Positions 10,503 through 63,909 of a stretch of 64,000 nucleotides of DNA are shown here, piece after piece. The stretch lies in the NCBI RefSeq assembly GCF_023520795.1, contig NZ_CP046605.1, positions 248,001-312,000 on the forward strand, read 5' to 3'. The notes beneath the pieces are model-generated. The model made no database searches. It was not told the DNA's origin and was given only the letters and a program-made list of their open reading frames with translations. The translations under genes were made by a program, and so were the position numbers. Each line of letters opens with the position of its first letter. Position 1 is the stretch's first letter. This DNA is from Corynebacterium accolens. Lineage in GTDB: Bacteria > Actinomycetota > Actinomycetes > Mycobacteriales > Mycobacteriaceae.

Positions 10503-10558
10503 GAAAGAGATAACTCCGAAAAGGCGAAGATAACAAAAATATAACTACGATCGATATC

Positions 10559-10588
10559 GTTAGAAGGAAAGATGATGTTGCTTCTAAC
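10559..10588. promoter_or_regulatory. Inverted repeat in the fadD / SGNH-hydrolase divergent promoter
   Basis: Arms GTTAGAAG (10559-10566) and CTTCTAAC (10581-10588) are perfect and spaced by 14 nt, about one and a half helical turns. This is the geometry of a dimeric repressor site between two divergent genes. No regulator gene is adjacent. Confidence 0.4.
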
Positions 10589-10654
10589 TCGAAAAATGTT
10601 ACTGGAGTGACTAATCTACACTTAAGTTACAAGGTTTGAAGAAAAGGTCCCTCA

Positions 10655-11473: not shown

Positions 11474-11525
11474 CAACTATTTTCATTACCGCGGCCATAT
11501 TGAAAATGTAGGTATGGTTGTGGAC

Positions 11526-12626: not shown

Positions 12627-13240
12627 TGCAGATTGAAAGCACGGTAACTTCTGGCAAGTTCCGCTTGGATGGCGGCGAATGGGACGTGGACAATAACGTC
12701 TACGTGCTAGGCGATGCCTCCAGCGTCTACATCGTCGACCCCTCCCACGATCTCGATGCCGTGGCAGAGCTGGTGGGCGACCGCAAGGTCGAGGGCATCA
12801 TCCTGACCCACGGCCACAACGATCACTGCGAGCTCGCGCCGGAGGCGGCGAAGCGCTTCGATGCGGATGTCTACATGCACCCGGACGATGACATGCTCTG
12901 GCGAGAGGCGAATGGCGATGCCCACTACATCGACCTAGCCGATAACGGCCAGTTCGACATCAACGGCGAGAAGATCACCGTCTACCACACCCCGGGCCAC
13001 TCGCCGGGCTGCGTCGTCCTCTACGTCGATGGCACGCTGCTGTCTGGCGATACCCTGTTCAACGGCGGCCCTGGCGCGACGGGGCGCAAGTACTCGGATT
13101 TCGATGTCATCATCGAATCCCTGCGCAACGTCGTCTTCAACCTGCCGGAAGATACGAAGGTCTTGCCGGGCCACGGCGATGCCACGACAGTGGGAGCGGA
13201 AGCGGCGCGCATCGACGAGTACATCGAGCGCGGCTACTAA
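12626..13240 (+). CDS. MBL-fold metallo-hydrolase partner of MscR
   Basis: 204 residues with the complete metallo-beta-lactamase signature: HGHNDHCE (metal ligands), [14 protein letters not shown] and LPGHGDAT. Related to glyoxalase-II-like thioesterases. One-base overlap with mscR suggests it hydrolyses the S-formyl-mycothiol product of that enzyme; this role is inferred from context. Its 3' end overlaps rmlA convergently by three bases. Confidence 0.85.
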
Positions 13241-14085
13241 TAATCGCGCAAGTACTCTCCGTAGCCGGATTTGAGGAGGGGCTGGGCTAGCGCTTCCAGC
13301 TCTGCCTGGGAGATGAATCCGGCTTCGTAGGCCGCCACCTCGGGGGAACCGATGACGATGCCCGTCCTCTTCTGCATCACCTCTACGTAGGCGGCGGCCT
13401 CGCTCATGGAATCGACGGTGCCGGTATCAAGCCACACGCTGCCGCGGTGGAGGCGCTGCACGCTCAGCGCGCCGCGGCGCAGGTAGGCCTCGTTGATGGA
13501 GGTAATCTCGAGCTCCCCGCGATCGCTTGGCGTGATGGACTTAGCGATATCGATGACCGAATTATCGTAGAAATACAGCCCCACGACGGCATGATTAGAC
13601 CGCGGTTCCGACGGCTTTTCTTCAATGCTGAGCGCTTGGCCGGCGTGGTCGAATTCGACGACTCCGTAGCGCTGCGGATCTGATACTTCATAGGCAAAGA
13701 TGATGCCGCCTTCTGGATTGCGGCACTGGCTTAGCTCTCCGCCGAAGCCGTGGAAGATATTGTCGCCGAGAACGAGCGCGACGCTGTCATCACCAATGAA
13801 ATCCTCCCCAATCAAAAAGGCCTGCGCCAATCCTTCTGGGCGGGCTTGGACGGCGTAATCGATCATCAACCCGAGCTGGGATCCATCCCCGAAGAGCCTT
13901 TGAAACGCCCCAGCGTCCTCTGGGGTGGTGATGATGAGGATCTCCCGAATGCCCGCCTGGATGAGCGTGGTCAACGGGTAGTAGATCATCGGCTTGTCAT
14001 AGATGGGCATGAGCTGCTTAGAGATGCCCTTAGTAATGGGATAAAGCCGCGTTCCGGATCCACCGGCGAGGATTATGCCTTTCAT
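13237..14085 (-). CDS. rmlA: Glucose-1-phosphate thymidylyltransferase
   Basis: 282 residues. The nucleotidyltransferase signature [16 protein letters not shown] opens the protein, then [25 protein letters not shown] (metal Asp) and the [10 protein letters not shown] block. It makes dTDP-glucose, the first step to dTDP-L-rhamnose. It is the last gene of an operon rmlB - rmlCD - rmlA, with 2 bp between rmlCD stop and this ATG. Confidence 0.94.
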
Positions 14086-14087
14086 CG

Positions 14088-15473
14088 CTACTCCTCGCTG
14101 GCCTTGCTGGGCTCGCCAGGAACGCTAGGGTACAGCGCGAGGTACAAGGCGAGGGCGGCCCGCCAATTCTGCGGGGAAAAGCCCGTGGCCTCGATTTTGT
14201 CTAGGGCAAGCGTCGATTCTTTGGGCCGTGGTGCTTCGGGGCCAGCGATTTCCCGATACTGTTCGGTGCTTACCGGCGTGACCTCTGATGGGTCATGGCC
14301 CAAGCCGATGAATACGGACATCGCCATTTCATCGCGCCCGACGGTATCGCCAGAATTGGAAATATTATAGATTCCGTACTCGGGCCGGGTGCGCAAGAGA
14401 TGCGCGATGCCCTTCGCCAAATCCTCGGCAAAGGTGGGTCGCCCGCGCTGGTCATGAATGACCTTCGGCTCTTTATCGGCTTCGGCGAGGCGGCGCATGG
14501 TGGCGATGAAGTTTGGGCCATCGCCAAACACCCACGAGGTGCGCACGACATAATGTTGCGGCGCGGTTTGCGCGGCGGTTTCGCCCGCGGCCTTCGACGC
14601 TCCGTAGGCGGAAAGGGGCGAGGGAATCTCGTCTTCGGTATGCAGCTCCTTAGAACCATCGAAAATGTAGTCGCTGGATACGTGCACGAAGGTCAGCTGG
14701 TTTTCGGCAGCGATGTGGGCGAGCTTGGCCGGCGCCTCGGCGTTGACGGCCCAAGCGGCGGCGCGATCGTCCTCGGCGCCATTGACGTCGTTGTAGGCGG
14801 CGCAGTTGATGATGGCCTCGTATTGCTTCCACTGGCGCTGCGGGGGATTGGTGATGTCGAACTCCGCATGGGTGCAGAACTCGGCATTCTTAAGAACCCG
14901 CTTCAGCGCCCGGCCGAGCTGGCCATTCGCACCGGTAACGAGGATTTTGCGGGGAGGCATGGGGGTGACGTCGGCAAGCGCAGGCAGGTGCTTGTCCTTT
15001 TCTGATACCTCGCGCGGTTCGAGGGGCCACTCCACGGCGTCGAGGTTGATTCCGGTATAGCGCGCCTCGGGGGACCAGTGCTCGTTGACCAGGTAGGAGT
15101 AGGAAGTCTCCTCGAGCGCTTGAAAACCATTGGCAACCCCGCGGGGCACAAATACGGCGGTCTCTGGCCCCACTTCATGGGTGACGATTTCGCCGAAAGT
15201 TGCGGAGCCTTCCCGCAGATCGCACCAAGCGCCAAAGATCTTGCCGTTCGCGACGGAGACGAGCTTGTCCCAAGGCTCGGCGTGCAGCCCGCGCGTGGCA
15301 CCAGTGCGGTTATAAGAAATATTATTTTGCACCGGCTGGAACGAAGCCAACTCTGGTGCGACCTCACCAAGCTTTTCGCGCTGCCAGTTTTCCTTGAACC
15401 AGCCACGGTTATCCCCGTGCACGTCCAGCTCGATGATGCGTAGGCCTTCAATGGCGGTGTTGTGTACCTGCAT
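14088..15473 (-). CDS. rmlCD: Bifunctional dTDP-4-dehydrorhamnose 3,5-epimerase / reductase fusion
   Basis: 461 residues. Residues 1 to about 170 are an RmlC cupin ([22 protein letters not shown] with catalytic His). From about 173 an RmlD short-chain reductase follows, with [12 protein letters not shown] for NADPH and [11 protein letters not shown] carrying the Tyr-x3-Lys pair. The two last steps of dTDP-L-rhamnose synthesis are thus on one chain, a fusion known in corynebacteria. Two base pairs separate it from rmlB upstream and rmlA downstream. Confidence 0.93.
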
Positions 15474-15475
15474 AA

Positions 15476-18171
<2,696 letters not shown>

Positions 18172-18336
18172 GGTTCCTCCTCCTTCCTGTTTCGCTTTCA
18201 TGTTCTATTCTATGTCAATAAAACACCAGCGCAACCGCAAGAAAGGAATTGGTCAATAGACTGTACATTCCCCAACCAAACGGGCCCAGCCGCAACCAAA
18301 CGCAAGCAACCCCCGCCAAACAGCGCCCGAAAACCA

Positions 18337-19662
18337 CTAATCCGGAAACTTAGGCAACGCTGTTTCATCGAGCCATGCGGCAACGGTGGCATCGAAAAGG
18401 GCGGCGTCCGGCGCAGCCTCCCGGAAGGACGAGAGGAGATCTGCGGGCTCGACCACGGAGTGCTGATGCTGGGTGAGGTAGGAGGTGAGGGTGGGGAAGA
18501 AGGCATCGCCAAGCAGCCGGTGAATGGCGTGTACCGCGAGGGCCCCGCGCTTGTACACGCGGTCATCGAACATATCGCGCGCGCCGGGATCAGAAACCTT
18601 GATGTCTTGGCGCTTGCGCATCAGAACTTGGTAATGCGAGCGCGCCGCCTCGCGCGCGGAGGACGCACCCTTGTGCTCACCCCACAACCACTCGCTGTAG
18701 CAGGCAAAACCCTCATTGAGCCAAATATCCTTCCACGCAGAAAGGCCAACGGAATTGCCAAACCACTGGTGGGAAAGCTCGTGCGCGATGAGCCGCTCGA
18801 AGGCGTGATCGCCCTTCACATGGTTGGAACCGAAAATGGACAAGCCTTGGGCCTCGAGGGGAATCTCCAGCTCATCCTCGGTAATGATGACCTGATAGGC
18901 GGGGAACGGATAAGGCCCGTAGATAGAGGAGAAGAAATCCACCATCTCCTGCTGCCGGGAAAACTCTTCGCGTACGCGCTCGCGCAAGAACGCCGGGGCC
19001 CACGCCTGGGTATTAGCCCCCAGCGAATACGAAGAAAACTCGCCTACCTGTACCGTTGCCAGGTATGTGGCCATGGGGTGGCGCGTGCGGTAGTGCCACC
19101 GAGTGGTGGAACCGCCGGCCTTGCGGGAGACCAATTCGCCATTGGAAATAACGGTAAAGGGGCTATCGGCGGTGATGATGATGTCATACGTCGCCTTTTC
19201 AGAAGGCGTGTCATCGCACGGGAACCAGCTGGGCGCGCCATTGGGCTGGCTGGCCACCAACGAGCCGGATTCGGTTTCCTCCCAGCCAATTTCACCCCAT
19301 GTGGTGCGGATGGGGCGCGGGCTGCCGCCGTAGCGAATGTGCAGCTCAAACTCGGTTCCGGCAGGGATTTCGGAGGCAAAACGCAAGCGCAGCTTCCCAG
19401 AAGATTGGCGGAACTTGGCCACCCGGGGCGCGTGCTTGGCGGTCACGCGCCGCGCCACCATCGCCCCGCCAAGATCTAAGGTTAAGGAGGTCAGTTCCTC
19501 CACCGCGCGCACGCTCAAAATGGCCTCGCCCTGCAGCAGGTTAGGCTCCACGCGGTAGTTCAAGTCCAGCGTGTAGTGGGTGACTTCAAAACCAAGGTTG
19601 AAGTCCACGCCGGTATAAGGATCAGTATGCGCACGCGAAAAGGCGGTAGGAAGCAATGTCAT
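18337..19662 (-). CDS. M1-family zinc metallopeptidase (aminopeptidase N-like)
   Basis: 441 residues. Zinc motif HELSHQWFGN at 294-303 with the third ligand Glu317 in WLNEGFACYSE, and catalytic Tyr370 in DDRVYKRGALA. The substrate loop reads LEAQGLSIFG in place of the classical GAMEN. The protein stops after the catalytic domain and lacks the large C-terminal helical domain, as in short actinobacterial members. No signal peptide is evident. Probably a cytoplasmic aminopeptidase. It lies 36 bp after the mycolyltransferase gene and may be co-transcribed. Confidence 0.88.
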   Translation of the reverse strand: MTLLPTAFSRAHTDPYTGVDFNLGFEVTHYTLDLNYRVEPNLLQGEAILSVRAVEELTSLTLDLGGAMVARRVTAKHAPRVAKFRQSSGKLRLRFASEIPAGTEFELHIRYGGSPRPIRTTWGEIGWEETESGSLVASQPNGAPSWFPCDDTPSEKATYDIIITADSPFTVISNGELVSRKAGGSTTRWHYRTRHPMATYLATVQVGEFSSYSLGANTQAWAPAFLRERVREEFSRQQEMVDFFSSIYGPYPFPAYQVIITEDELEIPLEAQGLSIFGSNHVKGDHAFERLIAHELSHQWFGNSVGLSAWKDIWLNEGFACYSEWLWGEHKGASSAREAARSHYQVLMRKRQDIKVSDPGARDMFDDRVYKRGALAVHAIHRLLGDAFFPTLTSYLTQHQHSVVEPADLLSSFREAAPDAALFDATVAAWLDETALPKFPD

Positions 19663-52434: not shown

Positions 52435-52689
52435 CTAAAGAGGAGTAGGAGTTAAAACAAGTAGATTAACTGTTAAGGCAATGGACACAACGATAGAAGT
52501 TGCCCTCCAAAAAAGAACCTTACCTCTTTTAAGACTATTAAGCTGGGGCCATTTAATGTCCGCAGCAACCCAAAGAAGAGGAAAGAAAAATAGGTAGGGA
52601 AACCCAGCAACGGCTGCGCCCATAGAAATCAAAATTATCGAGGCAGGTAAAATCCCCGACCCTGCTTTAGTTGCAGGTCTTGTCTGCAT
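52435..52689 (-). CDS. Small three-helix membrane protein, partner of the secreted protein upstream
   Basis: 84 residues from ATG 52689, chosen for AGGAGAG upstream. Three hydrophobic stretches: GILPASIILISMGAAVAGF, LFFFPLLWVAA and FWRATSIVVSIALTVNLLVL. The start lies 23 bp inside the 3' end of the gene for the secreted 4-Cys protein, so the two are translated together. The stop is only 4 bp from the IS end at 52430, so the natural C-terminus may be slightly altered. Immunity or export partner is a reasonable guess from context; no family recognised. Confidence 0.6.
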   Translation of the reverse strand: MQTRPATKAGSGILPASIILISMGAAVAGFPYLFFFPLLWVAADIKWPQLNSLKRGKVLFWRATSIVVSIALTVNLLVLTPTPL

Positions 52690-53293
52690 TGTACTCTCCT
52701 GAAGGTACAATATTTGCTGTGATGCATTCAGTCCGACGGTTCAACTTTACTTGACTGAAAGTCTCAGAAGACTTAGACGTCCAAGTTCCATTTCCAGTCG
52801 CGTATGCGACTGGATCATTTGCGTGACCGTCGTATGACCACGTTGGAGTTTTGGTCTCACCGCCAGCATCAATTACTTTGACGCTATCAATACTTACGCC
52901 GGGGTTCCCGCAAATTTCGACGGTCTGCCACCATGTGTAAAGTGTGTTTCCAAGCAAAGCTTTCTGCTCGAAATGCACACCATCCTTGCGGCAATAGTCT
53001 GCAGATCGTGTCGCGGTTCCCGAGTCTGCTGCCTCAGAAACAACAACATCACCAGGAGTATTATACTTATCAAAAGCTTCTCGATCAGCCGATGATAGCT
53101 TTTCAATGGCTTCTTCGGGAGCCGAGGATTCCATAACACGGTTGGTCACTTCCTTGGCTTTAGATAGCTCAACCGAATTACCTTCACTATCTGCCATAGC
53201 GGGAGCTTGCATGCCACTGGCCATGCTCAGTGCGAAGACTGCACTTGCTGCAAAAGCTGACAACTTCTTGTGATTTTCAGTGTTGGTTTTCAT
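52667..53293 (-). CDS. Secreted protein with four cysteines (candidate bacteriocin/effector)
   Basis: 208 residues from ATG 53293; the earlier frame is not used because the signal peptide starts here. Sec signal peptide with cleavage near AMA-DS (residue 34). An acidic helical pro-region (about 40-95) precedes a Cys-containing domain, with C101, C128, C190 and C207. The domain is rich in Thr, Gly, Asn and Trp (TLYTWWQTVE, WSYDGHAND, GNGTWTSKS). It looks like an exported precursor with a disulfide-bonded mature part, loosely like lactococcin-972-style bacteriocins, but no firm match. It overlaps the gene for a small membrane protein. Confidence 0.6.
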   Translation of the reverse strand: MKTNTENHKKLSAFAASAVFALSMASGMQAPAMADSEGNSVELSKAKEVTNRVMESSAPEEAIEKLSSADREAFDKYNTPGDVVVSEAADSGTATRSADYCRKDGVHFEQKALLGNTLYTWWQTVEICGNPGVSIDSVKVIDAGGETKTPTWSYDGHANDPVAYATGNGTWTSKSSETFSQVKLNRRTECITANIVPSGEYNADKTCN

Positions 53294-53529
53294 CTGAATT
53301 CCAATCTGAGTTCTTATCGTCCTAGTCCTTGACAAACATAACCTAACGCGTGAAGGGGGCAAGGGACAATCATTCGACTTTTTGCGTAGCGGAATTGTTA
53401 TATTTCCAGCGTGGCCTAACGCCGGCATCGAAGCCGACACGGACGGAGCAACCGTCACCAAGACCGCCACCTCAGTCCGGCAACGACCACCCCGCCCGGA
53501 ACTGGACTAGCCCCTAGAAAAACAAAGAC

Positions 53530-53869: not shown

Positions 53870-55155
53870 GGACCTGACCCCCTGGTGGTGGACACGCTGA
53901 AACCAGCATGTCGCTGGGGAAGTGAGGTACCTTTCCACCATGCCACGCAAGACCTACACCGAGCGGTTCAGGGGTCAACCGCAACTCGCTGCGCAGCTGG
54001 CGCGATGCCTTCGGCACACGCACCAAAACCAATGCCAACGGTGAGAAGGTCGCCAGCCTCATCGCCGCGTCGGACTCCGCCACCGCTGCCTCAGGACTGT
54101 CGGACGCCGAGCGCATCCGCGTACTGGAACGCGAAAACGCCAAACTCCGCGAGGAACGAGAAATCCTTCGTAAGGCGGCCAAGTATTTCGCGGAAGAGAC
54201 GAACTGGTGAACCGCTTCCGGTTCGTTGACGACCATCGAGACCTCTACGAGGTCAAGCGGTTATGCCAGGTCTTGAAACTCAATCGGTCCTCTTACTACG
54301 CCTGGAAATCAGCTGCCCCTGCCCGCCGGCAACGCCTCGTCGATGACGCGGTGCTGGGAGCGCAGATCAAGACCACCTTCAACGCCGAGAACGGCTGCTA
54401 CGGCGCGAAATGAGTGACTGCGGCGATCGACTCCGATCCCGTCAACGACCGGGGCAAGGGCGGCCGTCTCAATCACAAGCGCACCGCCCGGCTGATGCGG
54501 CAGATGGGCCTTTTTGGTTTCACCAGGAAACGCCGGGTGAAAACGACGACGTCGAGTAAACGGGACCCGAGGTTTCCGGATCTGCTGCAACGCCGGTTCA
54601 CTGCGGACAGGCCGAACGCGGTCTACGTCGGCGACATCACGTACCTGCCGATCGTGGACGAGTCGAATATGTACCTGGCCACGGTTATCGACTGCTATTC
54701 GCGGCAGTTGACGGGGTTTGCGATCGTTGATCACATGCGCACCGAGTTGGTTGAAGAAGCCCTGACGATGGCCCGGAAGGTTCGCGGGAGCCTAGACGGG
54801 GCGATCTTCCACTCGGATCACGGCAGTGTTTATACCTCTGATCAGTACCGGAGACTATGCGTGCGCTTCGGTGTCACCCAGTCGATGGGCGCGATCGGGA
54901 CGAGTGCGGACAACTCGTTGGCGGAGTCGTTCAACGCCTCGTTGAAGCGGGAAGTCCTGCAGGATGAGTCTAGTTTTCACTAGTCAGTTGGCCTGCCGCC
55001 AGGATGTGTTTCGGTGGTGCACGCGGTACAACACCAAACGATTGCATTCATGGTGCGGTTACCGCTCACCGAACGCCTTCGAAGACGCCGGGTTAGCTAC
55101 ACTTACTATCGCATCGTGATTAAATCCCCGTGTCCACTTTCCGGGGTTCGGGCCC
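53870..55155 (+). mobile_element. IS3-family element, decayed relative of the one at 51127 (1286 bp)
   Basis: Ends GGACCTGACCCCCTGG and, inward from the right, GGGCCCGAACCCCGG. OrfA starts MPRKTYTERF at 53941, then loses about 20 codons and the frame before GVNRNSLRSW. OrfB (54207 on) has AAA TGA at 54408-54413 where AAA CGA is expected, and an extra C near 54980 (TTTTCACTAG) that stops the protein before its RQDVFRWC tail. Flanking triplets AGA and ATT show no duplication. Dead copy. Confidence 0.85.
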
Positions 55156-55839
55156 ATTGAGGGAGATCCCCGCGTCGTTGAGCGCTGCCCGCCCGGTGGG
55201 AGTGAGACGCACGGCCCGGGTACGACCCCTGCGGGAAAGCCATTCCTTATCCAGCAGAGTCTTGCAGATTCCCGTGCCGAGAGGGCCGGCGAGGTGGAAG
55301 CGGCGTTCGGTGGAGTCCATGCACGACCTGCCCGTGTCGAGCATCTTCGGGGGCACACCCCACTGTATGAACAAGCGATGACCTTGATTAGTGACCTGAC
55401 AGTGCGAGTCGATGAACTCGTGCTCTTCCAGTTGTTCAGCCAGGCGCACCCCGAGCTTACCGGCGAGGTGCTGATAACAGGTGCGGCCTTCACGTAGGTT
55501 CGCATTCGCCCGTGACGCGCTGAGGCTGTGAGGAGTGGGCAGGGGCGAGCGGGCGACCACGCCAAGGCTCTCGACCACTCGTGCGATGTCTTCCCCGGCC
55601 AGGCGAATGTAGCGGTGCCGGCCCTGCCGAATGTCGTGGACGAGACCGTGGGTGACGAGCACGTCAACATGCTCGCTCGCCGTCGACCGGGCCAGGCCCG
55701 CGTACCTGCCAAGTTCACCAACCGTCCAGGCCCGCCCGTCCATGAGCGCAGCACACATGGCCGCCCGCGACGAGTCAGCCAGAGCCGACGCGACTGTCGA
55801 GATATCCGGGACCGCTTCAGGAAACACGCGCGCAACCAT
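55120..55839 (-). CDS. ArsR-type winged-helix repressor, last residues replaced by IS
   Basis: 239 residues from ATG 55839 (MVARVFPEAV); a start at 55914 is less likely because it would swallow the operator. N-terminal ArsR-like helix-turn-helix (LADSSRAAMCAALMDGRAWTVGELGRYAGLARSTASEHVDVLVTHGLV). The C-terminal half, with RRFHLAGPLGTGICKTLLDKEWL and LTPTGRAALNDAGI, is typical of the longer actinobacterial members. The final GPEPRKVDTGI comes from the IS end at 55155. No CxC metal motif is seen, so it is not a classical arsenic sensor. It probably controls the divergent thiF operon. Confidence 0.78.
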   Translation of the reverse strand: MVARVFPEAVPDISTVASALADSSRAAMCAALMDGRAWTVGELGRYAGLARSTASEHVDVLVTHGLVHDIRQGRHRYIRLAGEDIARVVESLGVVARSPLPTPHSLSASRANANLREGRTCYQHLAGKLGVRLAEQLEEHEFIDSHCQVTNQGHRLFIQWGVPPKMLDTGRSCMDSTERRFHLAGPLGTGICKTLLDKEWLSRRGRTRAVRLTPTGRAALNDAGISLNGPEPRKVDTGI

Positions 55840-55861
55840 GCCTCCAGTGTGCACCCGGAAC

Positions 55862-55881
55862 TGTTCGGTGACGACCGAACA
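55862..55881. promoter_or_regulatory. Operator palindrome between the ArsR-type gene and the thiF operon
   Basis: TGTTCGGT (55862-55869) and ACCGAACA (55874-55881) are perfect arms around GACG. It lies 23 bp upstream of the regulator ATG and 63 bp upstream of the ThiF ATG, the expected place for joint autoregulation and operon control. Confidence 0.6.
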
Positions 55882-55943
55882 ATCGCAGGCATAGTCTGAA
55901 CTCACCAGATTCATTGCATCAGGAGGCGAAGGGAGCGATCGCG

Positions 55944-56822
55944 ATGAACGGGGACCGCCAACGGCTACGCGGGCACTACGATGAGGACTTCTACTGGGAA
56001 CGCGTTGACCGCAACCTGGGTTGGCTCGGCGACACCACCGAGGAACAGCGTGAACGCCAAGCACGGTTGCGCGATGCCGTGATCGGCATCGTCGGCACCG
56101 GGGGCATCGGCGGTGCCGCAGCCGCCCGCCTGGTGCGCATGGGCGCACTCAACCTGAAACTGGCCGATCCCGACCACTTCGACCTGACTAACGTGCAACG
56201 CCAGTACGGCGCCGGGCGAGACACGATCGGCCGCAACAAGGCCGAAGTCGTCGCGGAGCAGGTCTTCGCACTGACCGGGGATGCCAACATCGATGTCTTC
56301 CCCGAGGGCATCACCCCGGACACGGCTGAAGAGTTCATGGACGGCTGCGACTATGTGATGGACCAGATGGAGTTCTACCAGATCAGCAACCGCTACGCCC
56401 TCCATCGCGCCTTCCGCGCCTCGGACCGGTGCAGGTTCATGTTCAAGATCCCGACCGTCGCGCACTCGACGGTCGTGTTCACCTACACGAAGGACTCGAT
56501 GCCCATCGAGGAGGTCTACGATCTCCCCGAGGATGCCGAGTTCACCCCGGACGTGATCCACCGGCTGATGGAACGCATCATGCCCGAGCATCAGGACTTC
56601 CCCTCGCCAGGCACGCTGGATGAGTGGTTCGTGGAGAAGCAGACGATGCCGATCTTCGGAGCCTGCCCGCCCCTGGCCGAAGGCATCCTCGTTGAACGCC
56701 TCGCCCAAGAGATCATGGACTTGCCCGGCCGTACGCCTCTGCCCGTGCAGCCCGGGTACGCGCTCTTCGACACCCTGACCTGGGAAGCGAAGACCGTTGA
56801 GAAGGCGTGGTGGGCGAAATGA
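55944..56822 (+). CDS. ThiF/MccB-like adenylyltransferase
   Basis: 292 residues from ATG 55944 (GAAGGGAG upstream). E1-like Rossmann core: GTGGIGG at 51-57, LADPDHFD with Asp75/Asp77, TNVQRQ with Asn83 and Arg86, GRNKA with Lys99, and DYVMDQMEF (136-144). The four-cysteine zinc site of ThiF/MoeB is absent, as is an obvious catalytic Cys for ubiquitin-like thioester chemistry. It should adenylate a carboxylate, perhaps a peptide C-terminus or small acid. It couples by ATGA to a formyltransferase gene and is followed by an exporter gene, recalling the mccB/mccC pair of microcin C clusters. Confidence 0.82.
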   Translation: MNGDRQRLRGHYDEDFYWERVDRNLGWLGDTTEEQRERQARLRDAVIGIVGTGGIGGAAAARLVRMGALNLKLADPDHFDLTNVQRQYGAGRDTIGRNKAEVVAEQVFALTGDANIDVFPEGITPDTAEEFMDGCDYVMDQMEFYQISNRYALHRAFRASDRCRFMFKIPTVAHSTVVFTYTKDSMPIEEVYDLPEDAEFTPDVIHRLMERIMPEHQDFPSPGTLDEWFVEKQTMPIFGACPPLAEGILVERLAQEIMDLPGRTPLPVQPGYALFDTLTWEAKTVEKAWWAK

Positions 56823-57481
56823 CACGCATGGTGCTCTTCACCGAGACCAATTCCGTCTTTGGCTCTTACTTCCTCACCCGACTTGCCAGGCACGATGATG
56901 TCATCCTGGCGGCTGTGGTGCTGCGTGAACCCGGCACACTCTGTGACTACTACCTCGATGAGCCCGAGCCCCTCGACCTCGCGAAGGACGCCGCCGAGCT
57001 GGATGTGCATACGCTGCGGCCGGCGCACATCAACACCGACGAATTCATTACCGCCATTGGGGGCCTGGCGCCGGACTACTTCATCGTCGCCAACTACCAG
57101 CTGCGGCTCGGGCAGCGACTCCTCGCGGTTCCGAGCTACGACGCCCTCAACTTCCACCCCAGCCCGTTGCCCCGCTATGCGGGGCTGGCACCGTTCTATT
57201 GGATGGCCGAGAACCACGAGACCCAGGGCGGAGTCTCCGCAGTGCGAACGACAGCTGGGCTCGACGAGGGCCCCCTCGTCGCCCAGCAACTCCTCACGCT
57301 CACCGGGGGAGAGACGGCCAGGGAGATCCGGGACATGCACTTCGCCGCGTCCTGGCGCCTGTTCGATCTGGTGCTGCCGACACTACTGGACCGGTCCTAC
57401 CGGACCTGGGATCAAGACCTGAGCAAGCGCACCTACTTCGGCCACCCGCCCGCCGAGGCTTCGCTGGAGTCTCGCGTATGA
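56819..57481 (+). CDS. Formyltransferase-fold enzyme (10-formyl-THF type)
   Basis: 220 residues from ATG 56819, which overlaps the ThiF TGA (ATGA). The formyltransferase triad is complete: Asn111 and His113 in NFHPSPLPRYAG, and Asp149 in GLDEGPL. The C-terminal tRNA-binding domain of methionyl-tRNA formyltransferase is missing, so it is more like GART or sugar/amine formyltransferases. It probably N-formylates the substrate or product of the ThiF-like enzyme. It ends in ATGA overlap with the transporter gene. Confidence 0.8.
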   Translation: MTRMVLFTETNSVFGSYFLTRLARHDDVILAAVVLREPGTLCDYYLDEPEPLDLAKDAAELDVHTLRPAHINTDEFITAIGGLAPDYFIVANYQLRLGQRLLAVPSYDALNFHPSPLPRYAGLAPFYWMAENHETQGGVSAVRTTAGLDEGPLVAQQLLTLTGGETAREIRDMHFAASWRLFDLVLPTLLDRSYRTWDQDLSKRTYFGHPPAEASLESRV

Positions 57482-58842
57482 CCGCGCATCGGCACACGGC
57501 GCTGGTCGCGACCCTCCTCGGTTTCTTCATCGTCATGCTCGATACGACCATCGTCAATGTCGCCCTCGCCGAGATCGGCACTGACCTCGACACGACGGTG
57601 GGCTCACTGCAGTGGGTCGTCGACGCTTACACCCTCGTGTTCGCCGCGTTCCTTCTCACAGCTGGGGCCGCATGCGACCGTCTCGGGGCCCGCAGGGTCT
57701 ACCTCGCTGGCCTGGTGGTCTTTGCTGTACTCTCGGCCGTGTGCGCCCTCGCTCCCACAGGCGGGTTCCTCGTCGCTGGTCGCACCGTCCAGGGCGTGGG
57801 CGCGGCAGCGATCGTGCCGGGCTCTCTGGCATTGCTGTCGGCTGTGTACGACGATCCGAAGGAACGAGCACGCGCCATCGGGCTGTGGGGCGGCGCAGGA
57901 GGTGTTGCCGCCGCGATCGGACCGGTCCTGGGCGGAGCGCTGGTGTCGGCGATCGGGTGGCGGGCGGTGTTCTGGGTCAACCTCCCCATCGTCGCTATCG
58001 GCTGTCTGCTCACCTTGTGGGCAATTCCCGCGCTCACGGGCAGTCGCGCGAGACGGGTGGACCTACCCGGACAGGTGCTCTCCGTGCTCACGCTGGTGGC
58101 AGTAACCTATGCAGTCATCACCGCAGGCGAACACGGATGGTCACCCTGGCAGGTAGCCGCGCTGATCGCCGGGGGCGTCTTCCTCGCCCTGTTCATCATC
58201 GCAGAGCGACGACATCCGGACCCGATGCTGCCGATGGCCTTGTTCACTCGTGCCCGGTTCTCCGTGGCCGCAATGGTAGGGCTCGCGCTCAACATCAGCT
58301 TCTTCGGACAACTCTTCGTGCTCTCCCTCTTCTTCCAGCAGTACCTGGGATACGAGCCGTGGCTGGCAGGCCTCGCGCTGGCACCACAGGCGTGCAGCGC
58401 CGTGGTCGCGTCACCGCTGGGCGGCCGTGCCGTCGCCCGGTGGGGCGCGTTCCCCACCATGCTCACCGGCCTGGTAGTCGGCACGATCGGCTTCAGCAGC
58501 CTCGTGCTGCTCACCGCAGAAACCCCTTACGTGGTGGTCGCGGTGTTGACCTTCACAGCTGGATTCGGGATGGCCTTCGCGATGCCGGCCGCGACCTCGG
58601 CCGCAGTGGCCTCGGCCCCGCCGGAACATGTCGGCATTGCAGGAGGAGTCATCAATGCCGCCCGCCAGACCGGCAGCGTCGTCGGCGTCGCAGTCCTCGG
58701 CGAAATGGTCGCCAGTGGAGCGTTCCTCACAGGCTTCCACACAGCCGTCGCGGTCGCCGGTGGAGTCTTCGGTGCCGCAGCGCTCGTAGTTGTTGCCACC
58801 ATCATCAGTCACCTACAGGAGCCAGTTACACCTGAAGTTTAG
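57478..58842 (+). CDS. DHA2-type MFS exporter
   Basis: 454 residues from ATG 57478. About 14 hydrophobic helices. It has FFIVMLDTTIVNVALAEI (motif D1-like), DRLGARRVYLAG (motif A) and the GxxxGPxxGG-type motif in AAIGPVLGGALV (motif C, antiporter drug/H+ exporters). It likely exports the product of the two upstream enzymes or confers self-resistance. Translationally coupled by a 4-bp overlap. The whole operon is visibly more GC-rich than the surrounding IS DNA. Confidence 0.85.
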   Translation: MTAHRHTALVATLLGFFIVMLDTTIVNVALAEIGTDLDTTVGSLQWVVDAYTLVFAAFLLTAGAACDRLGARRVYLAGLVVFAVLSAVCALAPTGGFLVAGRTVQGVGAAAIVPGSLALLSAVYDDPKERARAIGLWGGAGGVAAAIGPVLGGALVSAIGWRAVFWVNLPIVAIGCLLTLWAIPALTGSRARRVDLPGQVLSVLTLVAVTYAVITAGEHGWSPWQVAALIAGGVFLALFIIAERRHPDPMLPMALFTRARFSVAAMVGLALNISFFGQLFVLSLFFQQYLGYEPWLAGLALAPQACSAVVASPLGGRAVARWGAFPTMLTGLVVGTIGFSSLVLLTAETPYVVVAVLTFTAGFGMAFAMPAATSAAVASAPPEHVGIAGGVINAARQTGSVVGVAVLGEMVASGAFLTGFHTAVAVAGGVFGAAALVVVATIISHLQEPVTPEV

Positions 58843-58854
58843 AATCATTGTGTG

Positions 58855-59070
58855 ATGAAGCACCATCGGAGGAGGTCGAAGAAGCCGCCAGTCGAACGCG
58901 TACTGTGCTCCGAAACTGGTAAACGCGAATACGAGCACTATGATGACGCCGTGCACGTAGCACTGAAACGGTCGCGACGGGCAGGGCCGCTGCGGATCTA
59001 CGAATGCCCCTCGTGCGGGTCGTGGCACCTAACCAAGCGCCCTGACTGGGGTAAACCACCGGCGAACTAA
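58855..59070 (+). CDS. Small basic zinc-knuckle-like protein
   Basis: 71 residues from ATG 58855. Basic N-terminus (KHHRRRSKK), a Cys near residue 18, and IYECPSCGSWHLTKRP near the C-terminus. The CxxC with nearby His residues is a common short motif of actinobacterial phage and plasmid small proteins. It lies 12 bp after the exporter gene; it is probably a marker of mobile DNA rather than a part of the pathway, though a role as peptide precursor cannot be excluded. Confidence 0.6.
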   Translation: MKHHRRRSKKPPVERVLCSETGKREYEHYDDAVHVALKRSRRAGPLRIYECPSCGSWHLTKRPDWGKPPAN

Positions 59071-59458
59071 TGACACTGTACGGGTCTGTCTCGGCGAGGA
59101 ACGCTCCGGAGCGCGTCTTTCCTGGACGCTCCAGGAGTTTCGTTCTCATGCATAGGCAGCCGAGGCGCGCTGCAAGGCTTGTAGCCCTGAGGTCAGTCGC
59201 CTAGGGCTTTGTACCATGAAACTAGGCGCGCCAGCGACCATAGGCCATGGTCAGAGAGTATGAACACTGGTGACCAGATAGCAGGTCGCTTGTGTCAGGC
59301 AATGCGCCGGCGCATTGCCTGACCAGTATGAGCAACAGAGCGCGCTCAAAACGTTAGGGCGCGCACGCGCAAAAGAGAGCAGTCCCTTTTCGTAGTCACC
59401 TATGCTCCTCAGCCCACCGGGGTATGCACACAGCGCTCATACACTAAAAGAGTCACAC
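59071..59458. other. Noncoding block rich in perfect palindromes
   Basis: 388 bp without a supported gene. Palindromes: CGCTCCGGAGCG (59102-59113), CCTGGA-CGC-TCCAGG (59121-59135), GACCAT-aggcc-ATGGTC (59236-59252), the 30-bp palindrome at 59294-59323, and GCGCGC repeats near 59341-59365. The density is typical of plasmid origin, transfer or recombination sites. Confidence 0.5.
59294..59323. repeat. 30-bp perfect loopless palindrome
   Basis: Left half GTCAGGCAATGCGCC is followed directly by its exact reverse complement GGCGCATTGCCTGAC. No T-run follows, so it is not a standard terminator; a protein-binding or recombination site is more likely. Confidence 0.85.
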
Positions 59459-60768
59459 TGAAGTGCCCCGAGTTTTGTTCCTAGGCATTTGCCTTGTTTT
59501 CCATTATTGCCTGTGGCAAGTTCTGCTTCCAAAACTCGGTTTCCACCTCGACCGGGGTTCGGTATCCCAAGCTTTGGTGGAGCCTAGTCTCGTTCCACCA
59601 TGACACCCACTCGAACGTCGCGATTTCTACCTCTACAACGTCATCCCACCTGCGGGTATGGACTAGCTCGTTCTTATGAGGGGCCGTTAACGTTTTCAGC
59701 CAGAGCATTATCATAGGAGTCACCAACACTTCCGGTGGAAGCTGTAATGCCGTGCCGGGTAAGTCGCTCGTTGTAGACAACGCTGACGTACTGCGAGCCG
59801 TGATCCGAATGGTGAATGAGACCTGTTGTTTCCTCAGCACTCACAATCGCTTGGTTGAGTGCTTGCAGCGGCAAAGCTTCGGTCCGCATCGAATCTGACA
59901 GCGCCCACCCGACGATCCGCCGGGAGTAGACGTCGGTGACAAACGCGGTGTAGACGAATCCTTTTCGTGTCCGTACATAGGTAATGTCAGCCACCCACAG
60001 CTTATTCGGTCCTTGAGCTTTAAATTCACGCTCGACCAAATCCGGGCGCAAATCAGGCACGTTAGCTTTTCGGGTTGTAATCGGTGATCCGCCTTTGCCT
60101 TTGCCAGAAACGCCAGCTAGGCGCATCAGTCGGGCGGTTTGTTCACGACCGATATCGATTCCTTCACGGCGAAGAGCATGCCACATTTTCCGCACACCGT
60201 AGACACCATAATTATCCCGATGAACAGCACTAATGCGTTCAACCAACGCAGCATCACGAAGTCGACGAGCACTTAACCCGCGAGCCTTGGACTGGCGATA
60301 CCCACGCGAGGTGATAAACCCACCAGCCCGGTTATTTTTCAACGTCTTGCAGATGAACTCGGGCAGTGAAACGATTCCGGTTTTCATCGATGAACCGGAT
60401 CATTTCTTAACGTTTCGGGTCGAGTTCCGACGCGAAAAAGCTGACGCGGCCTTCAACAACTCATTAGTATCGCGTAGCTGGTGATTTTCACGACGTAGCC
60501 TCGCGTTTTCGGCAGCCACATCTTCAGGCACAGGTTCTGGGGTTCTTCCTGCACGGCGAGCAGGCTTAAGTCCATTGACGAGCTGTGTGCCATGAAACCC
60601 CCAGCTTTGGGCCTACTGCCTGGCACGCGGGGCGCATCGACATATTTTCCGCCAAGATGCGGTCCTCCACGAGACGGACCACACGGTCCTTCGCATCCTG
60701 GTCAAATTTTCTCGGCATGTTCCAGATTTTCCCATCTACTCAAACGGAACAAAACCTGGGACACTTCA
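59459..60768 (-). mobile_element. IS3-family element with decayed ORFs, copy C (1310 bp, minus strand)
   Basis: Same element as copies A, B and D in reverse orientation. OrfB is at 59674-60387 minus, with its tail in another frame at 59481-59840. It shares all frame breaks with copy B. Flanking triplets CAC and CCA show no duplication. Confidence 0.85.
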
Positions 60769-61307: not shown

Positions 61308-61634
61308 TTAAGACAAGGTGTAAATGACAATACCAATAATGGCAATGACTGCCATTATTATAGAAAAAGTAATCAACCTCTTATCGTATGGAAGTTCATA
61401 AACTGAAGGGGACACTTCCTTAGCTGCTGTCTTTACGCTCCCCAGCATGAGGGCTGTGAACAATAGAAATGTTAAAAGGTGAGCCCACCAAGGAACGGGA
61501 TTGCTCCATGTTATGAAAACGTTAGCAGACGTGAAAATCCCTGCCATAAGGAGAGCGAGTGTGATGGGGCGCATGTTATTCCCGAAGGATGTTTTCACTC
61601 TGCCGTCGAGAGCAAATGAGGTGAGATTAGCCAT
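61308..61634 (-). CDS. Small three-helix membrane protein, partner of the secreted four-cysteine protein
   Basis: 108 residues from ATG 61634, two bases after the stop of the upstream gene; ATG 61643, overlapping that stop, is an alternative. Hydrophobic segments: PITLALLMAGIFTSANVFI, HLLTFLLFTALMLG and TFSIIMAVIAIIGIVIY, with a basic/polar loop (KTAAKEVSPSVYELPYDKR). Tight coupling to a secreted Cys protein suggests an immunity or export partner. No family recognised. Confidence 0.6.
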   Translation of the reverse strand: MANLTSFALDGRVKTSFGNNMRPITLALLMAGIFTSANVFITWSNPVPWWAHLLTFLLFTALMLGSVKTAAKEVSPSVYELPYDKRLITFSIIMAVIAIIGIVIYTLS

Positions 61635-61636
61635 GC

Positions 61637-62149
61637 TTAACATCCTACTGCAGTTGCTGCTGCCCCCGCCGCAATGGTGCAAGGGATTCCTGCGGCTCCA
61701 GCGGTTCCCGCTGAAGCGGGAATGCATACAAGGCCTTCAACTGCTGCCCCTACACCCCACTTGACCCATTTATTGTTGGTGCAGGCCCTTTCAGCAATCC
61801 CCGAAGATGACACGGGGACGATGGTCCCGTCCTTATCTTGGAAAAGCTTCATGTCTTTAGGTAGTTCTGCATCTACTGAAGCGACTAGATCGCCGTGTTT
61901 ATTATGTACATTTACGGTTGCCCCGGAGAGTGTTACTTTATCTCCGCTTTGCAGGTGAGGCTTAAGCCCTACGCCGTCCATTGCATCAAATGATCTGCGT
62001 CCGTCCTTTGAGTCAAACGTCAAAGCATCTTTTTTCGTCTCTTGTTGTGCATGATTGCCAGTTGCGGCTTCGGCTTGAGCGGCAGTGGCTAGCCCTTCAC
62101 TCGTCGCCAGCGCAAGCGCGATAGAGGCAAAGATTTTCTTAACGGACAT
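61637..62149 (-). CDS. Secreted protein with hydrophobic four-cysteine C-terminal domain (candidate bacteriocin)
   Basis: 170 residues. Signal peptide 1-26 (cleavage near AQA-EA). A polar pro-region (about 30-118) follows. The C-terminal block of about 50 residues has Cys at 123, 142, 157 and 170; its core is Gly/Ala-rich and hydrophobic (WGVGAAVEGLVCIPASAGTA) and the last residue is Cys. This layout, a long polar leader plus a compact hydrophobic Cys-rich tail, is that of secreted bacteriocin precursors such as halocin-C8-like proteins; the family link is my impression only. AGGAAAGGG precedes the ATG. Translated directly before a three-helix membrane protein. Confidence 0.65.
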   Translation of the reverse strand: MSVKKIFASIALALATSEGLATAAQAEAATGNHAQQETKKDALTFDSKDGRRSFDAMDGVGLKPHLQSGDKVTLSGATVNVHNKHGDLVASVDAELPKDMKLFQDKDGTIVPVSSSGIAERACTNNKWVKWGVGAAVEGLVCIPASAGTAGAAGIPCTIAAGAAATAVGC

Positions 62150-62384: not shown

Positions 62385-63694
62385 TGAAGTGTCCCAGGTT
62401 TTGTTCCGTTTGAGTAGATGGGAAAATCTGGAACATGCCGAGAAAATTTGACCAGGATGCGAAGGACCGTGTGGTCCGTCTCGTGGAGGACCGCATCGTG
62501 GCGGAAAATATGTCGATGCGCCCCGCGTGCCAGGCAGTAGGCCCAAAGCTGGGGGTTTCATGGCACACAGCTCGTCAATGGACTTAAGCCTGCTCGCCGT
62601 GCAGGAAGAACCCCAGAACCTGTGCCTGAAGATGTGGCTGCCGAAAACGCGAGGCTACGTCGTGAAAATCACCAGCTACGCGATACTAATGAGTTGTTGA
62701 AGGCCGCGTCAGCTTTTTCGCGTCGGAACTCGACCCGAAACGTTAAGAAATGATCCGGTTCATCGATGAAAACCGGAATCGTTTCACTGCCCGAGTTCAT
62801 CTGCAAGACGTTGAAAAATAACCGGGCTGGTGGGTTTATCACCTCGCGTGGGTATCGCCAGTCCAAGGCTCGCGGGTTAAGTGCTCGTCGACTTCGTGAT
62901 GCTGCGTTGGTTGAACGCATTAGTGCTGTTCATCGGGATAATTATGGTGTCTACGGTGTGCGGAAAATGTGGCATGCTCTTCGCCGTGAAGGAATCGATA
63001 TCGGTCGTGAACAAACCGCCCGACTGATGCGCCTAGCTGGCGTTTCTGGCAAAGGCACAGGCGGATCACCGATTACAACCCGAAAAGCTAACGTGCCTGA
63101 TTTGCGCCCGGATTTGGTCGAGCGTGAATTTAAAGCTCAAGGACCGAATAAGCTGTGGGTGGCTGACATTACCTATGTACGGACACGAAAAGGATTCGTC
63201 TACACCGCGTTTGTCACCGACGTCTACTCCCGGCGGATCGTCGGGTGGGCGCTGTCAGATTCGATGCGGACCGAAGCTTTGCCGCTGCAAGCACTCAACC
63301 AAGCGATTGTGAGTGCTGAGGAAACAACAGGTCTCATTCACCATTCGGATCACGGCTCGCAGTACGTCAGCGTTGTCTACAACGAGCGACTTACCCGGCA
63401 CGGCATTACAGCTTCCACCGGAAGTGTTGGTGACTCCTATGATAATGCTCTGGCTGAAAACGTTAACGGCCCCTCATAAGAACGAGCTAGTCCATACCCG
63501 CAGGTGGGATGACGTTGTAGAGGTAGAAATCGCGACGTTCGAGTGGGTGTCATGGTGGAACGAGACTAGGCTCCACCAAAGCTTGGGATACCGAACCCCG
63601 GTCGAGGTGGAAACCGAGTTTTGGAAGCAGAACTTGCCACAGGCAATAATGGAAAACAAGGCAAATGCCTAGGAACAAAACTCGGGGCACTTCA
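62385..63694 (+). mobile_element. IS3-family element with decayed ORFs, copy D (1310 bp)
   Basis: Same ends and frame breaks as copies B and C, with substitutions of its own: Val for Leu in the EDRILAEN stretch of OrfA and Thr for Lys in the GKGKGG stretch of OrfB (62766-63479). Shared breaks plus private changes show that the breaks are older than this copy. Flanking triplets ACT and GTG. Confidence 0.87.
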
Positions 63695-63909
63695 GTGTCT
63701 CGCTTGATGGTTCCTCATCATTCCCCTGGACTACGGGTTCAAGACGGTGATAATGCCCATGGCGGAGCATCGGTCTCCGATCAGCCTGGAGGTCTGGTCC
63801 TATAAAACTCATTCTTCCTTCACTCTTGGTATAGTTTTTCGTAGGGATTGAAGGCCGACAGAAATCACAGCCACCCTCGATTCGAATGTACAAAGATACG
63901 TGAGTGACT
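63695..63909. other. Upstream region of the last gene
   Basis: 215 bp without a gene between the IS and the ATG at 63910. Confidence 0.4.

What the first reader, a model, noticed from the sequence alone, without database searches (positions are those of the whole stretch)
55120..58842. ArsR-controlled ThiF-like adenylyltransferase + formyltransferase + DHA2 exporter: candidate undescribed biosynthesis/export system
Seen: three genes with consecutive ATGA overlaps; intact ATP-binding motifs in the ThiF-like enzyme but no zinc cysteines; complete Asn-His-Asp triad in a formyltransferase lacking a tRNA-binding domain; a 14-helix exporter; and a divergent ArsR-like gene sharing a perfect TGTTCGGT-N4-ACCGAACA operator. 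Known: ThiF-like MccB adenylates a formyl-Met peptide in microcin C synthesis, and MccC is an MFS exporter. Inference: a carboxylate is adenylated and an amine formylated to give an exported small molecule or modified peptide, with the ArsR-type protein sensing product or inducer. The GC-rich segment sits between two IS3-family elements, suggesting transfer.
Basis: partly seen in the sequence, partly recalled or inferred. Interest (0 to 1): 0.78.

Follow-up and report, generated by a model that had tools for sequence, protein, structure and literature searches.

The report
Mobile ThiF–formyltransferase small-molecule operon
A skin-type Corynebacterium carries a transferable four-gene set that most likely makes, exports and protects its host from a small formylated compound, and related sets occur in staphylococci, lactobacilli and Streptomyces.

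Summary
Window 55120-58842 holds an ArsR-like gene, a palindrome found once in the genome, and an overlapping thiF–formyltransferase–DHA2 exporter operon. The cassette is 99% identical to part of a C. tuberculostearicum plasmid. Linkage is conserved: in a tree of 44 ThiF proteins, the 39 with an N-acyl-transferring gene nearby (formyltransferase 19, aspartate-carbamoyltransferase-like 14, GNAT 6) form one clade, and these partners replace one another. So ThiF and its partner form one pathway. Plasmids carry it in Corynebacterium, lactobacilli and Staphylococcus. Four distinct deletions, in 9 loci, removed most of ThiF and much or all of the formyltransferase but left a full-length exporter, the pattern of immune non-producers of a toxic product. 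Some actinobacterial relatives add nitrite-forming genes (CreE/CreD), carbamoyl-phosphate synthase or cyanase; two gammaproteobacterial loci add a haem-oxygenase-like–cupin protein. DNA-alkylation-repair genes lie near it in a few lineages. Best reading: a mobile biosynthesis, export and immunity operon for an N-formyl small molecule. Bold reading: an N-nitroso or diazo DNA-alkylating product. The microcin-type peptide idea is not supported. Ten searches of one open-access library showed no description. The product is unknown.

The parts
55120..55839 (-). ArsR-like winged-helix repressor gene, 239 aa from the ATG at 55839 (start unsure; longer in-frame starts up to 55914)
   Evidence: HTH_20 over cut-off; HTH_metalloreg 51 bits, just under its 55-bit cut-off; a homologue in 34 of 60 loci clustered
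55862..55881 (.). palindrome TGTTCGGT-N4-ACCGAACA, candidate operator between the divergent genes
   Evidence: sequence; only perfect match in the genome; similar palindrome at a similar place in L006, L050, L086, L080 (Corynebacterium), L022 (Curtobacterium), L024 and L052 (Brevibacterium), shorter in L074
55944..56822 (+). thiF-like E1-type adenylyltransferase gene, 292 aa
   Evidence: Pfam ThiF 93.4 bits; D75, N83, R86, Q87, K99, D136, D140 invariant in the 39 linked loci (40 rows, the window twice)
56819..57481 (+). Formyl_trans_N formyltransferase gene, 220 aa, short form
   Evidence: Pfam Formyl_trans_N 66 bits; N111 and H113 in 17 of 17, D149 in 16 of 17 aligned rows; best solved match by sequence ArnA
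57478..58842 (+). DHA2-type MFS exporter gene, 454 aa
   Evidence: TIGR00711 247.9 bits over cut-off 230.2; full length in the 9 deletion-derivative loci
55129..59461 (.). mobile cassette shared with plasmid NZ_CP073099 of C. tuberculostearicum (99.35% over 4334 columns)
   Evidence: plasmid annotation
59455..60768 (-). IS3-family element bounding the cassette on the right; inverted copy at 62385-63698
   Evidence: self-comparison 99.85%; transposase-like ORFs
53870..55128 (+). IS3-family remnant bounding the cassette on the left (approximate limits)
   Evidence: transposase-like ORF 54414-54983; same IS-cassette junction on C. aurimucosum plasmid pET44827, 53971-56061 at 99.0%

Best explanation
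A transferable biosynthesis, export and immunity operon for a small, biologically active compound. The formyltransferase puts a formyl group on the amine of a small substrate; in relatives a carbamoyltransferase or a GNAT acyltransferase does the equivalent step. The ThiF protein uses ATP to adenylate that substrate and so activates it for the bond-forming step. The DHA2 exporter expels the product and is also the core of self-protection. The ArsR-like protein represses both units from the palindrome at 55862-55881 and is released by the product or an intermediate. Shown by sequence: operon structure, intact catalytic motifs, linkage of this ThiF clade to N-acyl-transferring genes, interchange of the partners, mobility on plasmids, repeated loss of ThiF/formyltransferase with retention of the exporter. 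Inferred: the substrate, the order of steps, what ThiF adenylates, that the product is toxic, repression at the palindrome, and the inducer.
For: Linkage: the 39 rows of the ThiF clade (100/98 support) have a formyltransferase (19), carbamoyltransferase (14) or GNAT gene (6, labels set by me) nearby; the 5 other rows got no such label; the four labels need 5 changes on the tree against 21.2 for shuffled labels. Start-to-stop distance is -37 to 0 nt in 30 of 33 loci (starts picked by script). Dedicated supply: L043, L044 and L049 have carA/carB beside ThiF-CT, and each of those 3 genomes holds a second carA over the cut-off elsewhere. The ThiF-linked CT falls below the aspartate-carbamoyltransferase cut-off of 237 bits in 6 of 6 genomes (175-233 bits); in 5 of them a separate enzyme passes it. 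Altered substrate site: the CT keeps the carbamoyl-phosphate motifs, while the stretch that aligns with TRIQ of a solved aspartate carbamoyltransferase differs in the 13 of 14 rows that reach it: IPFEL.DF in 6, a near variant in L033 and L041, other sequence in L043, L044, L047, L048, L049 (the 14th, L009, is cut by a stop before it). Exporter kept: four distinct ThiF/formyltransferase deletions in 9 loci, each with a 450- or 454-aa exporter; the lactobacillus types keep the DNA-3-methyladenine glycosylase gene too. Palindrome. Mobility.
Against: No product, substrate or activity is known. The exporter-kept pattern would also arise if exporter and enzymes were all resistance functions and the exporter alone sufficed. 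L009 has a shortened regulator as well as a stop in its CT. The four FT-type Streptomyces loci (L027, L028, L040, L075) have no DHA2-exporter hit beside them. The Curtobacterium L022 formyltransferase has G in place of D149. The palindrome is absent in 14 of 23 loci examined.
Confidence: 0.7

Rival explanations
1. The product is an N-N compound, an N-nitroso-formamide or N-nitroso-urea (or the diazo species it releases), that alkylates DNA. FT, CT or GNAT makes the N-acyl amine; nitrite or an N-oxygenase supplies the second nitrogen; ThiF performs the ATP-dependent nitrosation or the activation that precedes it. Minimal operons use nitrite made by the host or its surroundings.
For: CreD-like lyase within 10 kb in 7 of 52 ThiF-linked loci and 0 of 14 other loci; CreE-like enzyme in 8 of 52 (a weak 34% fragment in L050 left out) and 0 of 14. 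The L037 lyase scores 450 bits with solved CreD and 586.7 bits with the nitrosuccinate lyase model, under its cut-off of 650. Lyases of this kind (related non-CreD lyases probably included) are in 249 of 384 Streptomyces genomes, one to three copies in the rows listed, so by my estimate one within 10 kb of a given gene is under 1% likely by chance. A haem-oxygenase-like + cupin protein lies directly upstream of ThiF in L033 and one gene upstream in L029; that is the domain order of SznF as described in PMC11705231 (passages). Cyanase in L035 and L037, both CT-type with CreE/CreD, as expected if a nitrosourea releases cyanate (chemistry recalled). DNA-alkylation-repair genes in 11 of 52 linked loci and 0 of 14 others: 8 lactobacilli, L010, L045, and a weak match in L044. 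narG over cut-off in the window genome.
Against: No CreE/CreD, HDO or cyanase hit beside the minimal operons, this one included (the window genome as a whole was not searched for them). The actinomycete loci L036, L038, L039, L041, L051 and L074 have no CreE/CreD hit either. L043 has CT, CreE and CreD but no cyanase hit up to its contig end. narG is over the cut-off in only 6 of 12 genomes checked. No SznF entry appears in the list of the solved-structure search with the HDO-cupin protein (60 of 71 matches shown). The 8 lactobacillus loci are close kin, and the glycosylase copy of L012 is only 40% alike and in pieces. The 14 comparison loci hold 174,790 bases against 870,144, and one of them (L014) has a GNAT gene nearby. 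I know of no ThiF-type nitrosating enzyme.
Confidence: 0.3
2. Carboxylate activation and ring closure: FT or CT acylates an alpha-amino acid, ThiF adenylates its carboxylate, and the acyl nitrogen or oxygen attacks it to give a hydantoin-, oxazolone- or related ring, as TcdA does with the carbamoyl-threonine side chain of tRNA (the hydantoin form of that product is recalled).
For: TcdA-type enzymes are among the best solved matches of the ThiF profile. The CT keeps R166, near ATCase R167, in 13 of 14 rows while losing the stretch for the aspartate side chain, so an amino acid other than aspartate is a plausible acceptor (residue roles recalled).
Against: Ring closure is natural for an N-carbamoyl but not for an N-formyl amino acid, and does not explain the CreE/CreD, cyanase or repair genes.
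Confidence: 0.25
3. Resistance only: the enzymes modify and the pump expels an environmental toxin, and the ArsR-like protein senses it; no compound is made.
For: Small plasmids, sporadic distribution (6 of 201 genomes of the own genus, 6 of 392 Streptomyces, 1 of 296 of the phylum sample), divergent-repressor layout, drug-exporter family.
Against: Two coupled enzymes, plus carbamoyl-phosphate synthase and nitrite-forming genes in relatives, fit production better; the four distinct deletions dropped the enzymes and kept the pump.
Confidence: 0.15
4. Microcin-C- or pantocin-like modified peptide.
For: MccB and PaaA are among the solved matches of the ThiF profile; MFS exporter.
Against: N-terminal region of MccB and PaaA absent; no shared short ORF of 12-90 codons in 18 loci; the formyltransferase is a partner that CT and GNAT replace.
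Confidence: 0.04

Closest known systems
MccB / microcin C and PaaA / pantocin A
   Same: E1-type ThiF-fold adenylating enzyme (profile match) in a mobile or secondary-metabolite setting with an MFS exporter (their biology recalled)
   Different: no N-terminal region of MccB/PaaA, no peptide gene found, paired with FT/CT/GNAT instead
TcdA (tRNA threonylcarbamoyladenosine dehydratase)
   Same: E1-like fold, among the best solved matches by profile; acts on a carbamoyl-amino acid (recalled)
   Different: not a tRNA enzyme by context; only about residues 32-144 of the profile are matched
PRK08223-type ThiF proteins (NF006077, 'hypothetical protein')
   Same: best NCBIfam match of the window ThiF, 130.5 bits over residues 17-279
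   Different: below that model's cut-off of 266 bits; no function given
ArnA/Fmt/PurN formyltransferases
   Same: Formyl_trans_N domain and Asn-His-Asp residues
   Different: below the curated cut-offs of the ArnA, fmt and PurN models; short form in this branch
Aspartate-nitrosuccinate pathway clusters (cremeomycin CreE/CreD, alanosine, fosfazinomycin)
   Same: CreE- and CreD-like genes beside ThiF in some Streptomyces
   Different: a ThiF plus FT/CT core does not appear in the review passages that I read (PMC11705231)
Streptozotocin SznF
   Same: HDO-then-cupin architecture near ThiF in L029 and L033
   Different: no SznF entry in the listed sequence matches; absent beside this operon

Membership tests
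MccB-type peptide adenylyltransferase (microcin C) | ThiF-fold adenylation core | tested here: met
   profile match 58 bits to MccB over residues 10-118; invariant motif residues
MccB-type peptide adenylyltransferase (microcin C) | N-terminal peptide-binding domain (role recalled) | tested here: not met
   query residue 10 aligns with MccB residue 81-84; 292 aa in all
MccB-type peptide adenylyltransferase (microcin C) | small precursor-peptide gene | tested here: inconclusive
   none of 12-90 codons shared across lineages in 18 loci; shorter ones not examined
MoeB/ThiF sulfur-carrier activation | curated MoeB or ThiF score and zinc CxxC pairs | tested here: not met
   70 of 275 bits for ThiF, 40 of 377 for MoeB; no CxxC
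ArsR/SmtB metalloregulator | curated family score | tested here: not met
   51 bits against cut-off 55; about 240 aa against a 77-position model; metal ligands not tested
DHA2 MFS exporter | EmrB-type model over cut-off | tested here: met
   247.9 over 230.2 bits
Aspartate carbamoyltransferase (partner enzyme in relatives) | carbamoyl-phosphate site | tested here: met
   STRT and RH in 14 of 14 rows; HPTQ in 13 of 14, the 14th (L009) being cut by a stop; 14 of 15 CT hits used, L051 left out
Aspartate carbamoyltransferase (partner enzyme in relatives) | aspartate-binding stretch and curated score | tested here: not met
   TRIQ stretch replaced; below cut-off 237 in 6 of 6 genomes, with a separate enzyme over it in 5
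N-nitroso / diazo natural-product pathway | source of the second nitrogen in the cluster | tested here: inconclusive
   CreE/CreD or HDO-cupin in some relatives, none beside this operon
N-nitroso / diazo natural-product pathway | product with an N-N bond | not testable with these tools
   needs chemistry

The most novel reading that the evidence does not exclude
Skin, gut and food bacteria carry on plasmids a very small pathway to a DNA-alkylating N-nitroso-formamide or N-nitroso-urea. An E1-type ThiF enzyme acts as an ATP-dependent N-nitrosating enzyme on an N-formyl or N-carbamoyl amine, using host or ambient nitrite; Streptomyces versions make their own nitrite, and some carry cyanase to remove the cyanate released by the urea type. 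Exporter and DNA glycosylase form the immunity, and immune cheaters that have lost the biosynthetic genes are common.
Probability: 0.17. Interest if true: 0.93.

Novelty: new variant of a known kind. Interest (0 to 1): 0.74.

Why it matters
The core pair (E1-type ThiF plus an exchangeable formyl-, carbamoyl- or acyl-transferase) occurs in three phyla and on plasmids of human commensals, and I found no description of it in ten searches of one open-access library. If it makes a toxic small molecule, it explains competition and immune non-producers among skin corynebacteria and lactobacilli. If the N-N reading holds, it would expose commensal-made DNA-alkylating agents and a new class of N-N-forming enzyme; a review passage that I read names SznF as the only enzyme identified that builds the N-nitrosourea group (PMC11705231). 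Clear gene pairs and natural deletion mutants make it directly testable.

Tried and rejected
Sulfur-carrier activation (MoeB/ThiF): rejected on scores and absent CxxC. Anti-phage E1 systems: only matches of the ThiF domain to PADLOC E1 models, up to 46 bits among the 25 of 29 shown, and no PADLOC match for formyltransferase or exporter. Housekeeping pyrimidine operon as the explanation of CT plus carAB: rejected, since the three genomes each have a second carA over the cut-off elsewhere and the CT falls below the ATCase cut-off. N-nitroglycine as the product of the S. noursei cluster: rejected; the paper (PMC13274452, abstract and passages) assigns that compound to a hydrazinoacetate route. 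It mentions CreE/CreD homologues in the S. noursei genome; that these are the genes of L028 (another strain) is my inference. 6-N-hydroxyaminopurine of S. epidermidis: a listing of 8 papers (none opened) gave no hint of such a plasmid. Viral contigs: 105 stretches matched a pattern, none a relative. Short-peptide precursor: none found; a first attempt was discarded because it picked up tails of the main genes. First gene calls were replaced by codon-trained calls and tblastn maps because many GC-rich ORFs were wrong. One search was a translation one base out of frame. Structure prediction could not be used. Papers listed but not opened include PMC6594144 and PMC7109123.

Weak points of my own counts: the 52 linked loci include near-duplicates (also two copies of the same plasmid type, and broken operons); the 14 comparison loci hold 174,790 bases against 870,144, and L014 among them has a GNAT gene nearby; GNAT labels were set by hand; ThiF matches covering no more than 75% of the query or scoring no more than 80 bits were left out of the tree (44 of 58 used); three near-copies (L013, L021, L031) were left out before that; 17 of 24 FT hits were used for the residue count and 14 of 15 CT hits. 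Of the 6 genus hits only 2 (the own genome and G093) are full length.

Full report
What is there. The four genes and the palindrome are at the coordinates given: ArsR-like gene (minus strand, ending at 55120, start unsure), palindrome 55862-55881, thiF 55944-56822, formyltransferase 56819-57481, exporter 57478-58842. Both junctions overlap as ATGA. Pfam gives ThiF (93.4 bits), Formyl_trans_N (66 bits) and MFS_1 (187.5 bits). The exporter passes the DHA2/EmrB cut-off and the regulator falls just short of the ArsR/SmtB one. The palindrome has one perfect copy in the genome; within 2 mismatches the reversed control pattern matches as often.

Where it comes from. The window lies in a 2,465,625-base single-contig genome, of a Corynebacterium to judge by its closest relatives: a plasmid of C. 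tuberculostearicum (ThiF 99%) and a C. kefirresidentii contig (98%). The stretch 55129-59461 is 99.35% identical to that plasmid, and 53971-56061 is 99.0% identical to C. aurimucosum plasmid pET44827, including the IS3 junction. In samples of other species the gene is rare: 6 of 201 genomes of the genus (2 of them full length), 1 of 296 of the phylum (the window's own genome), 6 of 392 Streptomyces genomes. Sporadic presence, plasmid copies and IS borders together mean transfer.

Conserved linkage. Plasmid records gave 32 with a ThiF match at E 1e-5, some of them distant. Limosilactobacillus and Lactiplantibacillus plasmids carry an ArsR-type regulator, ThiF, formyltransferase and MFS in the same order. 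The three Staphylococcus plasmids that I opened (two S. epidermidis, one S. pasteuri; 14 matched) carry ThiF with an aspartate-carbamoyltransferase-like gene, a regulator and MFS; in S. pasteuri the second gene has a stop. A scan of one genome per species gave 47 loci. In a maximum-likelihood tree of 44 ThiF proteins, the 39 rows with a formyltransferase (19), carbamoyltransferase (14) or GNAT acyltransferase (6) nearby form one clade with support 100/98. The labels need 5 changes (shuffled mean 21.2). GNAT rows L034 and L042 nest inside the formyltransferase clade, and carbamoyltransferase rows L047 and L048 nest with GNAT rows. The formyl- or carbamoyltransferase start lies -37 to 0 nt from the ThiF stop in 30 of 33 loci, at 48-51 nt in two, and behind the MFS gene in one. 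Exchange of three unrelated N-acylating enzymes beside one ThiF clade says that an N-acyl group is the common step.

Active sites. D75, N83, R86, Q87, K99, D136 and D140 of ThiF are invariant in the 39 linked loci (40 rows, the window counted twice), together with Y17, R20, C135, H154 and R252, which the five ThiF proteins outside the clade mostly lack. The formyltransferase triad is present in 17, 17 and 16 of 17 rows. The carbamoyltransferase keeps the carbamoyl-phosphate motifs, but the stretch that aligns with TRIQ of a solved aspartate carbamoyltransferase is different in the 13 rows that reach it: IPFEL.DF in 6, near variants in 2, other sequence in 5 (residue roles recalled). It is a paralogue, not the housekeeping enzyme: in 6 of 6 genomes it falls below the curated cut-off, and in 5 a separate enzyme passes it; in the sixth, a 1.7-Mb assembly (L033), none passes. 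L043, L044 and L049 have carA and carB beside it, and each of those genomes has another carA over the cut-off elsewhere. A dedicated carbamoyl-phosphate supply argues for production rather than resistance.

Deletion derivatives that keep the exporter. Four distinct deletions occur in 9 loci. Corynebacterium L050 and L081 fuse ThiF 1-113 in frame to the formyltransferase tail (179-aa frame). C. aurimucosum plasmids L086 and L087 keep about 42 residues of ThiF and a piece of the formyltransferase. Lactobacilli L055, L082, L083 and L084 keep a 132-aa stub. Limosilactobacillus portuensis L085 keeps a 94-aa stub. In all 9 the exporter frame is full length (450 or 454 aa) and follows closely. A regulator gene is annotated at the expected place in L082-L086 (in L084 and L085 as DUF5937) and matched by sequence in L050, L055 and L081; in L087 none is annotated and I did not check the DNA. 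The lactobacilli also keep a DNA-3-methyladenine glycosylase I gene. Further broken cases are L051 (ThiF/CT deletion), L080 (formyltransferase split) and L009 (stop in CT, with a shortened regulator). The enzymes go, the pump stays: this is what immune non-producers of a toxic compound look like, though a pump sufficient for resistance would give the same picture.

What the relatives add. In some Streptomyces the operon sits in larger clusters. One type is ThiF-FT-O-methyltransferase-CapA-RidA-ArsR-CreE-CreD (L027, L028, L040, L075). The other is CapA-ThiF-CT-GlcD-CreE-CreD-cyanase-ArsR-RidA-MFS (L035, L037). L036, L038, L039, L041, L051 and L074 have no CreE/CreD hit. The L037 lyase matches solved CreD at 450 bits. 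Against 14 other loci, the 52 linked loci have CreD 7 to 0, CreE 8 to 0 (one weak fragment left out), CapA 13 to 0, RidA 10 to 2 (some RidA matches only 29-34% alike). Lyases of this kind are common in Streptomyces (249 of 384 genomes), but by my estimate one within 10 kb of a given gene is under 1% likely by chance. Two gammaproteobacterial loci have a Haem_oxygenas_2 + Cupin_2 protein just before ThiF (L033) or one gene before it (L029), the order of domains in SznF (PMC11705231, passages), though no SznF entry is in the listed matches. DNA-alkylation-repair genes lie near the operon in 11 of 52 loci, 8 of them lactobacilli and one (L044) a weak match, and in 0 of 14 others. The window genome has a full narG; of 12 genomes checked, 6 have one over the cut-off.

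How it probably works. Formylation of a small amine, ATP-dependent activation by ThiF, export by the DHA2 pump, repression by the ArsR-like protein at the palindrome. The chemistry of the ThiF step is open. Two readings compete: nitrosation (N-nitroso-formamide or -urea, explaining CreE/CreD, HDO-cupin, cyanase and repair genes), and carboxylate activation with ring closure as in TcdA. Neither is shown. The first has more genomic support in relatives but none inside the minimal operon.

Novelty. The ten paper searches showed no account of the system. The 2024 review of N-N enzymes was seen as outline and passages and has no hit for formyl. The S. noursei nitramine paper was seen as abstract, outline and passages and has no hit for ThiF or formyl. 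Most subscription papers and all preprints are missing from that library, so this is not proof of absence.

Noticed in passing
window 61637-62149 (-) and 61308-61727 (-): A 170-aa secreted-looking protein with a Cys/Gly/Ala-rich hydrophobic C-terminus next to a 139-aa membrane-type protein, between two inverted IS3 copies; looks by eye like a bacteriocin-and-immunity pair. No Pfam family over its cut-off.
   Followed up: partly
window 52667-53470 (-) and 52435-52710 (-): A second secreted-looking protein with a small membrane-type neighbour, just left of the cassette; no Pfam or NCBIfam match for the larger one.
   Followed up: partly
window 58855-59070 (+): A 71-codon frame with a CPSC zinc-ribbon-like motif directly downstream of the exporter (read); no cross-lineage match in the short-ORF test.
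   Followed up: partly
L080:8640-10830: Corynebacterium-genus genome G093 carries a ThiF identical to that of Brevibacterium linens, with its formyltransferase split by about 1.5 kb of other DNA: a recent transfer between genera.
   Followed up: partly
L046:5217-7695: More distant ThiF of the same clade between what look by eye like an acyl-carrier protein and a KAS-III gene, with a GNAT-like gene: another natural-product setting.
   Followed up: no
L028 (Streptomyces noursei A-2-1), 8970-19261: A ThiF/formyltransferase cluster with CreE and CreD homologues in the species that makes N-nitroglycine; by gene content not the hydrazinoacetate route described for that compound.
   Followed up: partly
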